DNA of 64,000 bases from Nitrososphaerota archaeon (GTDB lineage Archaea > Thermoproteota > Nitrososphaeria > Nitrososphaerales > Nitrosopumilaceae). The notes under the pieces are model-generated. The model made no database searches, was not told where the DNA came from, and was given only the letters and a program-made list of their open reading frames with translations. The position numbers and the translations under genes were made by a program. Below are positions 21,321 through 38,334 of this stretch, piece by piece (within the stretch, counting starts at the first letter, position 1; every line of letters begins with the position of its first letter). Location: assembly GCA_026708305.1 (NCBI GenBank), contig JAPOVD010000005.1, forward strand, positions 62,001 through 126,000, written 5' to 3'.

Positions 21321-22238
21321 TTACTTTAGAGCACCTTTACTAGGTTTACATATTATAGTATTACATTTTACATTTTCTTCATTGAAACTCTTTTTCATTG
21401 CATAACAAATTTTTTTTAATTCTGATGACTTATCAGCAACAGCAATTATTGTTGGCCCTGCACCGCTTATAGAAGCTCCAAATGCACCAGCCTTGATAGC
21501 ACTTGTTTTTACTTTTAAAAAACCTGGTATTAATTTTTTTCTAGATTCTTCTATTATTCGATCGTTCATAGATTCTCCAATTGTTTTAATATTATTATTC
21601 ATAAAACCATATACCATTTGTGTTGCGTTAGACAAATTATATATGCTATCTTTTAATTTAATTTTAGACGGCATTACATTTCTTGCAAGCTTAGTTTTTT
21701 GATCTGCTATCTTAATTTCTGGTATTGCTAAACATAGTCTAAGATTCTGTGGAGGAGTTACAGTAAAAACATTCAAAGGATTATTTTTAACTATCACAAA
21801 ACCTCCTAGTATAGACGCTGCAACATTATCATAGTGTATTGTCCCTGAGCTAGCTTTTTCACCCAACCCTGCAAATTTTATTAATGAATTTGAATCTAAG
21901 TTTAATTTAAATAATTTATTAAACCCAATTGCTGCTGCTGCCGCTGACGCCGCACTACTTCCCATACCGAAGCCTATTGGAACACCTTTCTTCAGATATA
22001 TTGATACTCCGTCATTGATTCCAAACTCTTTTTTCATACATCTTATTGTTATGGTAGCTGTATTTCTTTTATTGATTAGAACTTTGTTGACATTGATCAT
22101 TTTGACTCCCGAATCATTTTTTCTACATATTTTTATTTCATCATAAAATGCATCTATTGCCAAACCAAAAACATCAAAACCTGGACCTAAATTAGCTGTT
22201 GATGACGGTGCTTTAACAACTACACTTGAAATTTTCAT
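21321..22238 (-). CDS. thrB: Homoserine kinase
   Basis: This GHMP kinase phosphorylates homoserine in threonine synthesis. The 305-residue protein begins with the family motif PSSTANLGPGFD, has the ATP loop PIGFGMGSSAASA (about 86-98) and the C-terminal GAFGASISGAGPT motif. Its start overlaps the end of the GPN-loop gene by 4 bp, and queC follows by 11 bp, so three minus-strand genes form one unit. Aspartate kinase for the same pathway is at 41.1 kb. Confidence 0.94.
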   Translation of the reverse strand: MKISSVVVKAPSSTANLGPGFDVFGLAIDAFYDEIKICRKNDSGVKMINVNKVLINKRNTATITIRCMKKEFGINDGVSIYLKKGVPIGFGMGSSAASAAAAAIGFNKLFKLNLDSNSLIKFAGLGEKASSGTIHYDNVAASILGGFVIVKNNPLNVFTVTPPQNLRLCLAIPEIKIADQKTKLARNVMPSKIKLKDSIYNLSNATQMVYGFMNNNIKTIGESMNDRIIEESRKKLIPGFLKVKTSAIKAGAFGASISGAGPTIIAVADKSSELKKICYAMKKSFNEENVKCNTIICKPSKGALK

Positions 22239-22986
22239 GATTCTAAATTCATCATTCTATTTATCGTAACTTCTAAATCTGAGAATCCAAAATTTTTTAT
22301 ATTTGAGATCGGTAATATTTCATTAAATAATCCATCCATATTCAGGCTACGTAAAATTGATGTGGTTAAAGTATATTTTTCATTATTTAATTCGTTTGAA
22401 ATTTGTTGTTCAAGTTTGCTTGGCTCATTTGACCATTTTAAAATTTTTTCTAATTTATTTTGGATTAAATCAATTTTTGTTAATACATTGGGTGTTGGTA
22501 TATTAAGACGTAATCTTATGGATGCAACTAAAAGTGAAACAGAAACAAAATTGTTGGGTGTATCTACTATGCTTCCATAGTATACAAAAATATTCATCTT
22601 TTCATCAGCTTGTAAATTTTCTATTAAAAAAGGACTGCTATTTCTATATACAAATAGCTCAATTTGTCCAGGAGTATCTATTATTAAAAATTTTGGGTTT
22701 ATTGAATCAACATCTGATTGTAATTTGCAGATGTTAGTTGCCATTATATATGTTACCATTATCGAAGCTCCATTTGGACCTAAATTATATTGTTTCATTA
22801 TCATTGAAGTGTCCACACATATTTTCTTATGTCTATATCACAATTATATGGTAAATTTTTTACATCAGGATCTAAATTCAATACAGATGTAAAAAACTCA
22901 TACTTTTTATAATGTTCATAGATATTTGATACTAGTACTGATTTTCCAGATCTAGCTGTTCCTGTCACAAATATATTTTTCAACAT
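22235..22986 (-). pseudogene. GPN-loop GTPase, frame-broken (frameshift at about 22,810-22,820)
   Basis: Two overlapping frames together make one GPN-loop GTPase of about 254 residues. The first frame (22986 to 22801, ATG start) holds the P-loop GTARSGKS and NLPYNCDIDIRKYV, then stops. The second frame (from about 22816, only a GTG start) continues with MIMKQYNLGPNG, which contains the Gly-Pro-Asn motif, then DTPGQIELF and TKIDL. The break falls at a GTGTG dinucleotide run; removing two bases or adding one joins the frames exactly. A real disruption, a sequence error or programmed frameshifting are all possible. The protein is otherwise intact and its gene overlaps thrB by 4 bp. Confidence 0.8.
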
Positions 22987-36649: not shown

Positions 36650-37171
36650 TCACTTGATATACACATTGTGTAATTTTTTTGGTTTGATAATATATGTTCC
36701 AATAATTGATAATGTGAAGCTATATTCATCTTCAGAATCAACATTACTTGATAACAGAATCATTGATTTTGATATTTTAGCTAATGATGTTAACAACATT
36801 ATGGTAGTAGTGATTTTTATTCCGGAATCATTACTGAATACATTATTGAAGCTATTTAACGAATCAATTATCAATAAACATTTTTGTTTAGCAAGTTTCA
36901 ATGATATGTTCTTAATATTGTCTATAGTGGCTTTATTAGTTGGTTGTATTATAGTCACACTTTTTTCTTGTCTTAATATGCCTGATTTAACGTAGCCACT
37001 ATAAAGAAGGTCGCAATCTACATAAATTATTTCATAATTCATAACTTTGATTAATTTATCAATAAAATTAATTTTGGTAAATGGATTTTTGTAATATATA
37101 TTAATTATATTTGAATGCGCTAGGTTGCTTATTTTTTTTATGTCGCTATCCACATAATTTTTATCATACAC
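36650..37171 (-). CDS. RecA/KaiC-like protein with degenerate P-loop
   Basis: I do not recognise a named family for this 173-residue protein. The layout resembles a RecA-fold ATPase: NIINIYYKNPFTKINF sits where a Walker A loop is expected but lacks the Gly and GK[ST] residues, and KCLLIIDSLNSF is a good Walker B strand. It may therefore bind but not hydrolyse nucleotide, or act as a structural partner. It is divergent from the class V aminotransferase gene with 26 bp between starts. Confidence 0.45.
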   Translation of the reverse strand: MYDKNYVDSDIKKISNLAHSNIINIYYKNPFTKINFIDKLIKVMNYEIIYVDCDLLYSGYVKSGILRQEKSVTIIQPTNKATIDNIKNISLKLAKQKCLLIIDSLNSFNNVFSNDSGIKITTTIMLLTSLAKISKSMILLSSNVDSEDEYSFTLSIIGTYIIKPKKLHNVYIK

Positions 37172-37197
37172 ATGTTATATGCTATTTTGAAAATAAT

Positions 37198-38334
37198 ATG
37201 AATTTTTATGAAAAGATTTTGTATGACTTTCCACGCAAAAAAGTCTACATGAATAACGCATCAGTATCTTTGATGCCACATTCTTGCATTGAAAAAATGA
37301 GAAACTTTCTTATCTCATATAATGAATTAGGACCTGATTCTATGCATTCAGAACAGTTCATAACAGAACAACTAATAAAAACTAGAAAAACAATTTCTAA
37401 ATTATTAAATTGTTCCATTAATAAAATTATCTTAACTCAAAGTACCACTGATGGGGTGAATATGGTAGCTAATGGTTTGAAATTTAAAACACGATCTAAT
37501 GTAATATTACGAGGCTTGAATCATGAACATCATGCAAATTATTATCCATGGTTAAAATTACGTAATAAGACTAAAATAAGCAATTTGAAGGTCAATGAAA
37601 ATGGGTTTTTTGATATGGAGCAACTTGTAGAACAAGCAAACAAAAACACAAATTTGGTTGTATTAAGCCATGCATTATATAATACAGGTGCCATTATGCC
37701 CATAAATGAAGTGGGTGATATGCTTGAAAAAAAAAACGTGCCTTATTTTATTGACGCAGCACAAACAATCGGATGCGTAGAATTTAACGTCAATAAATGT
37801 AAATGTACTTTTGCGTCTTTCAACGGATCTAAATGGTTATGTGGGCCTATGGGGACAGGAATATTTTACTGTGGTAATCCAGAATTACTACAACCAACTA
37901 ATATTGGAGGAGAATCAGTAATTCTATTTCAAAATAAATTGGTTTATAAAGATGTACCAAATAAATTTCAAGCTGGTTTTCGCAATTACGTTGGATTTAT
38001 AGGGTTAAATGAATCAGCTAACTATCTTCTGAAATTAGGAATCAGTAAAATACGAAAAATTACTATCAAATTGGCAAATTTATTACGTAATGAATTATCT
38101 AAAATTAAAACTATTACTCTATATGGCCCTGAAGATCCCAACATGCGAAATAGTATTGTCTCGTTTAATATAGATGGATTAGATCCTAAATTTGTAGTTG
38201 CCAAATTAGAAAAACAACGAATTATTCTTGCAGTACGTGAAATATATGATAAAAAGATTATTAGAATTTCACCACATTTTTTTAATAATGAAAATGAAGT
38301 AATGAAAGTTGTAGAAGCTATCAAACAATTATGA
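37198..38334 (+). CDS. Class V PLP aminotransferase (cysteine desulfurase/epimerase-like)
   Basis: The PLP fold is clear: TQSTTDGVNMVANGL near residue 84, GLNHEHHANYYPW, the DAAQTIG cofactor-Asp motif near 187 and FNGSKWLCGPMGTG with the PLP-Lys near 213. The active-site Cys loop of group II desulfurases is not obvious, so it may be a lyase or epimerase rather than a sulfur donor. I chose ATG 37198, which gives 378 residues and begins as the family does; the longer frame from 37111 would overlap the divergent gene. Confidence 0.75.
   Translation: MNFYEKILYDFPRKKVYMNNASVSLMPHSCIEKMRNFLISYNELGPDSMHSEQFITEQLIKTRKTISKLLNCSINKIILTQSTTDGVNMVANGLKFKTRSNVILRGLNHEHHANYYPWLKLRNKTKISNLKVNENGFFDMEQLVEQANKNTNLVVLSHALYNTGAIMPINEVGDMLEKKNVPYFIDAAQTIGCVEFNVNKCKCTFASFNGSKWLCGPMGTGIFYCGNPELLQPTNIGGESVILFQNKLVYKDVPNKFQAGFRNYVGFIGLNESANYLLKLGISKIRKITIKLANLLRNELSKIKTITLYGPEDPNMRNSIVSFNIDGLDPKFVVAKLEKQRIILAVREIYDKKIIRISPHFFNNENEVMKVVEAIKQL

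What the first reader, a model, noticed from the sequence alone, without database searches (positions are those of the whole stretch)
22235..22986. Frame-broken GPN-loop GTPase at a GT dinucleotide run
The P-loop half and the half carrying the Gly-Pro-Asn motif lie in different frames that overlap by 16 bp. Joining them at the GTGTG run (about 22,816-22,821) restores a full-length protein without losing conserved residues. The gene is embedded in a tight operon and its family is highly conserved in archaea, so loss would be surprising. Sequence error, a recent mutation or programmed frameshifting are the options.
Basis: partly seen in the sequence, partly recalled or inferred. Interest (0 to 1): 0.55.

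Follow-up and report, generated by a model that had tools for sequence, protein, structure and literature searches.

The report
Broken GPN-loop GTPase gene, probable pseudogene
The only copy of a GTPase gene that nearly all related archaea keep intact is interrupted here by two extra bases and also carries unusual changes at conserved positions, so it looks like a recently inactivated gene, although one sequencing error at this spot cannot be excluded without the raw reads.

Summary
On the minus strand a 61-aa frame (22801-22986, P-loop) and a 193-aa frame (22235-22816, GPN motif) match consecutive parts of Pfam ATP_bind_1 and overlap by 16 bp. Compared with two congeners and two other relatives, this copy has two extra bases (one more TG in TGTGTG, 22814-22819). 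No second GPN gene was found. Among 213 genomes of the order (>=90% complete) with a match, only this one has two pieces.

No other clear mid-gene break appeared among 149 congener proteins tested on 367 kb of this genome. No slippery heptamer, fold or conserved break supports programmed frameshifting.

Best reading: a young, lineage-specific pseudogene in a small-genome Nitrosopumilaceae archaeon (about 0.6). An isolated sequence error stays open (about 0.3). Loss is plausible: deleting the Sulfolobus gene did not affect growth.

The parts
22801..22986 (-). N-terminal fragment of the GPN-loop GTPase gene (61 aa: P-loop and NLDP motif), ends in TGA just after the break
   Evidence: ORF; PF03029 positions 1-51, E 2.1e-12
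22235..22816 (-). C-terminal fragment (193-aa open frame: GPN, DTPGQ, TKID motifs), frame -1 relative to the first part
   Evidence: ORF; PF03029 positions 54-237, E 5.5e-28
22814..22819 (-). TGTGTG, one TG unit longer than in the four relatives aligned: the frame-breaking insertion
   Evidence: DNA alignment with two congeners and two other relatives; position
21321..22238 (-). Intact homoserine kinase gene downstream, overlapping the end of the GPN frame; same neighbours in 34 of 36 same-family relatives (the other two, G008 and G021, lack both)
   Evidence: NCBIfam homoserine kinase; adjacency read by eye from coordinates

Best explanation
This is the single GPN-loop GTPase gene of a small-genome (0.84 Mb) Nitrosopumilaceae archaeon, recently inactivated in this lineage by duplication of a TG unit (two extra bases) after codon 57. 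Shown: the two-base difference, single copy in the assembly, unbroken frames in both congeners and nearly all relatives searched, and excess change at invariant residues in the main test. Inferred: that the bases are real in the organism; that selection was relaxed; and that translation yields a 61-aa P-loop stub ending at 22801 while the downstream 193-aa frame is at most poorly translated, so the cell has no complete GPN GTPase. The downstream homoserine kinase gene is intact and presumably still expressed.
For: Only one GPN gene found in the genome: the third match is translation initiation factor aIF-2. 213 of 221 genomes of the order (>=90% complete) have a match at E<=1e-9; by eye on the table each of the other 212 has one match, E 1.1e-48 or better, and G000 alone has two. 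Both congeners carry the gene in one frame; the G002 copy (79% complete draft, not) is divided by contig ends. Changes in this genome, not in G001, at columns invariant in the outgroups: GPN 8 of 72, five with a negative BLOSUM62 score (G12R, G41D, D79Y, D136Y, T230K), against 6 of 246, one negative, in homoserine kinase, CoaBC and aspartokinase (one-sided Fisher p 0.0045 and 0.0026). Changes in G001 only: 2 of 72 in GPN, 4 of 246 in the controls. SaGPN also has G, D, Y, G, D at the positions of G12, D79, Y99, G117, D136 (alignment). No other clear mid-gene frame break among 149 G001 proteins tested against 367 kb of this genome. Deleting saGPN did not affect growth of S. acidocaldarius (PMC10746158, section read).
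Against: No reads or second isolate of the species were available. There is only one lesion and the 193-aa frame is otherwise open. Over the C-terminal part the amino-acid divergence on this branch is not an outlier (of 66 window frames compared, itself included, 16 have a higher ratio and 20 a higher dN). A further 9 of the 72 columns are changed in both this genome and G001, a rate like that of homoserine kinase (10 of 84), so part of the change belongs to the genus. With 80 named genomes the contrast with homoserine kinase weakens (7 of 66 against 2 of 80, p 0.08) and vanishes at a 98% threshold that also counts changes shared by the genus (11 of 87 against 11 of 103, p 0.82). The hallmark residues (P-loop GK, GPN, DTPGQ, TKID) are kept. 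A survey of frame breaks expects isolated, BLAST-confirmed cases to be sequencing errors rather than true indels (PMC3711429, passages).
Confidence: 0.6

Rival explanations
1. An isolated sequencing or assembly error (one extra TG in a short dinucleotide run) in an intact, working gene; the unusual residues are ordinary fast evolution of this lineage.
For: Single lesion, no further stops, hallmark motifs kept; branch-wide divergence not an outlier; invariant-site contrast weak or absent in some designs; expectation stated in PMC3711429.
Against: The one clear break found in the sample (1 of 149 congener proteins tested) falls in a gene that also has an excess of radical changes at invariant sites. 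TGTGTG is short and occurs 8 times in the window.
Confidence: 0.3
2. Programmed -1 frameshifting or transcriptional slippage makes a full-length protein from the two frames.
For: The second frame is open and overlaps the first by 16 bp; a -1 shift would be needed, at the cost of one extra residue; an A-AAA stretch lies just upstream (by eye).
Against: Seen only in this genome; no X XXY YYZ heptamer by eye; the longest A run at the site is four; the predicted fold of 96 bases around and downstream is no better than shuffles (z 0.19).
Confidence: 0.04
3. A working two-piece GTPase: stub and C-terminal part are translated separately (GTG at 22816 as start) and act together.
For: A GTG lies exactly at the start of the second frame and that frame is open for 193 codons.
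Against: No GGTG- or GGAG-like start signal just upstream of the GTG (by eye); no other genome shows two pieces; the P-loop stub has an arginine where all compared relatives have glycine.
Confidence: 0.04

Closest known systems
Archaeal GPN-loop GTPase SaGPN (Saci_1281, PDB 7ZHF/7ZHK)
   Same: Closest solved relative of the congener protein (E 2.2e-45); Walker A, NLDP, GPN, DTPGQ and K-D motifs are all present across the two window fragments.
   Different: SaGPN is one open frame; here it is broken after codon 57, and G12, D79, Y99, G117 and D136, all kept in SaGPN, are changed.
GPN genes of the two congeners (G001 = WTHC01 CO36406bin_13; G002 = JAHRAP01 MEX2-MAG6)
   Same: Same place next to homoserine kinase; DNA with short flanks 73% and 78% identical; 9 of 72 outgroup-invariant columns are changed in both G001 and the window.
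   Different: One open frame, two bases fewer at the junction; 2 of 72 columns changed only in G001 against 8 changed only in the window.
Singleton frameshifted genes / recent pseudogenes in prokaryotic surveys (GeneTack, PMC3711429)
   Same: A break seen in one genome, confirmed by homology on both sides, no recoding signal.
   Different: Here the gene is single-copy and nearly universal in its order, and an excess of changes at invariant sites accompanies the break in the main test.

Membership tests
Archaeal GPN-loop GTPase (PF03029) | Match to the family profile above the curated cut-off | tested here: met
   Both fragments exceed 27 bits (98.8 and 47.8) and cover consecutive profile positions
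Archaeal GPN-loop GTPase (PF03029) | Walker A GxxxxGK[ST] and GPN motif | tested here: met
   GTARSGKS in the first fragment and GPN in the second; the glycine at position 12, invariant in the relatives compared, is replaced
Archaeal GPN-loop GTPase (PF03029) | One continuous reading frame of about 250 codons | tested here: not met
   Two frames, break at 22814-22819
Archaeal GPN-loop GTPase (PF03029) | GTP binding and hydrolysis, dimer formation | not testable with these tools
   needs protein
Pseudogene | Disabling lesion relative to intact orthologues | tested here: met
   Two extra bases, premature stop after 61 codons; unbroken in both congeners
Pseudogene | Relaxed selection | tested here: inconclusive
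   8 of 72 against 6 of 246 in controls, p 0.0045; weaker or absent in other designs
Pseudogene | Lesion present in the organism, not only in the assembly | not testable with these tools
   no reads or second isolate held
Programmed frameshifting gene | Break conserved among relatives | tested here: not met
   Only this genome has two pieces among 213 with a match
Programmed frameshifting gene | Slippery sequence and stimulatory structure | tested here: not met
   No X XXY YYZ heptamer by eye; fold z-score 0.19

The most novel reading that the evidence does not exclude
The GPN GTPase of this archaeon still works as two separately translated polypeptides, or through a so far undescribed frame change at the TGTGTG run, with the unusual residues as compensating changes.
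Probability: 0.06. Interest if true: 0.6.

Novelty: new member of a known kind. Interest (0 to 1): 0.27.

Why it matters
If the break is real, this is a natural loss of the single GPN-loop GTPase in a family known (from general knowledge) for ammonia-oxidising archaea, where nearly every other genome searched keeps it. It would show that the protein, whose archaeal role is unclear and whose eukaryotic relatives serve RNA polymerase II maturation (PMC10746158 abstract), is dispensable in at least one lineage. Archaellin is not detected in this genome or its two congeners, yet the congeners keep an unbroken GPN, so loss of motility alone would not explain the loss. If the break is an error, it is a correction to one genome record.

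Tried and rejected
Branch-specific dN/dS with a codon model (the 66 frames with 90 or more compared codons were ranked): synonymous sites are saturated on this branch, so omega cannot date the inactivation. Only relative non-synonymous distances were read, for the C-terminal part alone, and they do not single out this gene.

An intact second copy: rejected. The only further match in the genome is translation initiation factor aIF-2.

Other apparent breaks. In the window, the suspects other than GPN (6 of 7 from G001, 5 of 6 from G002) were judged from the alignments to be differences near gene ends or frames that are probably not genes. In the wider sample, four G001-based suspects other than GPN were upstream extensions or, in one case, two overlapping genes that I take for the primase subunits (recalled, no call). 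One G002-based suspect (37177, near the N-terminus of frame 36653-37171) was looked at only at protein level and is most likely a different start. Suspects in the reverse direction (7, 2) concern the congeners' sequences; of these only L110:9718-10125 was inspected. A protein counted as tested only with identity of at least 45% and half of its length matched.

Broader invariant-site tests gave the same direction with varying strength; window 8 of 62 in GPN and 1 of 72 in homoserine kinase, next highest relative 6 of 62 in GPN; against aspartokinase 3 of 84 p 0.054, against homoserine kinase p 0.012, pooled p 0.0053, two-sided. GPN 8 of 74, homoserine kinase 2 of 88, aspartokinase 3 of 86. One search is given under evidence against. 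Dropped rows: L006 and L012 were not found by my motif filter (28 of 30 loci used). In one search the GPN set used 26 of 29 loci (L050, L071, L073 not recovered) and the homoserine kinase set 29 of 29. In one search, 80 of 80 loci gave GPN and 75 of 80 gave homoserine kinase of sufficient length. In one search the CoaBC outgroups include two genomes from other families of the order (L246, L247).

A first search with the C-terminal half alone in genome contigs found nothing. Viral contigs gave nothing. PADLOC gave nothing. Papers: no text found for the congener isolate names. (at least two of GPN-loop, Thaumarchaeota, pseudogene; 47 papers, 10 listed) lists none that mentions GPN-loop. One search lists 9 papers with both 'GPN-loop GTPase' and 'archaea', of which I read parts of one.

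Full report
WHAT IS THERE. On the minus strand of the window a 61-codon frame (22801-22986) is followed by a 193-codon frame (22235-22816) shifted by one, with a 16-bp overlap. Pfam ATP_bind_1 (PF03029, the GPN-loop GTPase family) aligns to the first at model positions 1-51 and to the second at 54-237 (one search gives 51-237 for the second). So this is one gene in two frames and not two genes. The best NCBIfam model of both fragments is the same (NF010340, GTPase PRK13768); both score below its whole-protein cut-off of 293 bits, as does the congener protein (282.7).

WHAT CHANGED. The DNA alignment with the two congeners and two further relatives shows a length difference at the junction: the window reads TGTGTG where the others have one TG fewer (position 22814-22819). 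With short flanks the window copy is 73% identical to the G001 copy and 78% to the G002 copy. Both congeners have the gene in one frame; the G002 copy is divided by contig ends.

HOW UNUSUAL. The genome (836,782 bases, 9 contigs, 95.5% complete) showed no second GPN gene: the third profile match is translation initiation factor aIF-2. In the order, 213 of 221 genomes at least 90% complete have a match at E<=1e-9. Reading the table by eye, this genome is the only one with two matches; the eight without a match are drafts of about 20 to 720 contigs, and all 32 single-contig genomes have the gene. In the same family the gene lies next to homoserine kinase in 34 of 36 relatives. The two others (G008, G021) lack both, as expected from an assembly gap (coordinates, compared by eye). 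The homoserine kinase in the window is intact.

ERROR OR DECAY: FRAME BREAKS ELSEWHERE. If the assembly were rich in indel errors, other genes should be broken. I compared proteins of the congeners with the window and with further stretches, 366,872 bases of this genome in all. Of 149 G001 proteins tested, five were flagged: the GPN gene and four that on inspection were upstream extensions or, in one case, two overlapping genes. Of 65 G002 proteins tested, two were flagged: GPN and one near a gene start (37177), which I judged to be a different start without DNA-level inspection. So the break is the only clear one in the sample. The sample is about 44% of the genome, and only genes with a fetched congener counterpart of sufficient similarity could be tested.

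ERROR OR DECAY: CONSERVED RESIDUES. In the alignment the P-loop reads GTARSGKS where all compared relatives have glycine instead of R; NLDPG has become NLDPD; and two conserved aspartates are tyrosines. I counted columns invariant in relatives outside the genus, changed in the window and unchanged in G001. GPN has 8 of 72 (25 outgroups), homoserine kinase 1 of 84 (27), CoaBC 2 of 67 (21, two of them from other families of the order), aspartokinase 3 of 95 (21). Pooled controls are 6 of 246; one-sided Fisher p 0.0045. Changes with a negative BLOSUM62 score are 5 against 1 (p 0.0026). Changes in G001 only are 2 of 72 in GPN and 4 of 246 in the controls. Columns changed in both are 9, 10, 2 and 4. 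At a 95% threshold the window-only figures are 10 of 103 against 14 of 371 (p 0.019).

RESULTS AGAINST. The invariant-site idea arose after seeing the alignment, the controls are three genes of my choice, and the p-values are one-sided. Other designs are weaker. Leave-one-out with 80 named genomes gives 7 of 66 for GPN against 2 of 80 for homoserine kinase (p 0.08), and at a 98% threshold 11 of 87 against 11 of 103 (p 0.82), because many of those changes are shared by the genus. Amino-acid divergence of the C-terminal part on this branch is not extreme: of 66 window frames, itself included, 16 have a higher ratio and 20 a higher dN. The motif residues named in the SaGPN paper (P-loop lysine, the aspartate of NLD, GPN, the DTPGQ aspartate, K and D of TKID) are kept. 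A survey of frame breaks in prokaryotes (PMC3711429, passages seen) expects BLAST-confirmed singletons to be sequencing errors rather than true indels. I therefore give the pseudogene 0.6 and error 0.3.

RECODING. A -1 shift would be needed. Around the site the zero-frame codons read AGA AAA TAT GTG TGG; no X XXY YYZ heptamer is present and the longest A run is four (by eye). The 96 bases around and downstream of the site fold no better than shuffles (z 0.19). No other genome shares the break. Programmed frameshifting is unlikely.

FUNCTION AND CONSEQUENCE. In S. [quoted passage not shown] abstract and sections 5, 6, 8, 11 read). Loss is therefore plausible in an archaeon that does not swim. 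Archaellin was not detected in this genome or in either congener, but the congeners keep GPN, so lack of archaella is at most permissive. That the organism is host-associated or streamlined is only suggested by its genome size and was not tested.

VERDICT. A single break, seen in this genome only, in its sole GPN-loop GTPase gene: most likely a young pseudogene, with an isolated sequence error as the main rival.

Noticed in passing
L130:525-1144 (G001:C6): The congener's counterpart of G000 frame L110:9718-10125 (136 aa) is itself in two frames, with 17 residues matched twice, as if a partial duplication broke it in G001 and not in this genome.
   Followed up: partly
G000, G001, G002: No archaellin (PF01917) match in any of the three genomes of the genus, while 11 of 37 genomes searched have one at E<=0.001.
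   Followed up: no
G105, G136, G159, G164, G021, G080, G205, G230: Eight draft genomes of the order, 90-98% complete, show no GPN match at E<=1e-9; gaps or further losses were not distinguished, except that G021 also lacks the neighbouring homoserine kinase.
   Followed up: no
G029:C57:7820-8533, G067:C18:62314-63018, G045:C1:39865-40560: GPN matches lie in unusually long open frames (555, 453 and 392 codons against about 255), possibly extended or fused proteins.
   Followed up: no
window 36653-37255: The G002 counterpart aligns upstream of the window frame 36653-37171 through an in-frame TAA at 37177; probably a different start, otherwise a truncated N-terminus.
   Followed up: partly
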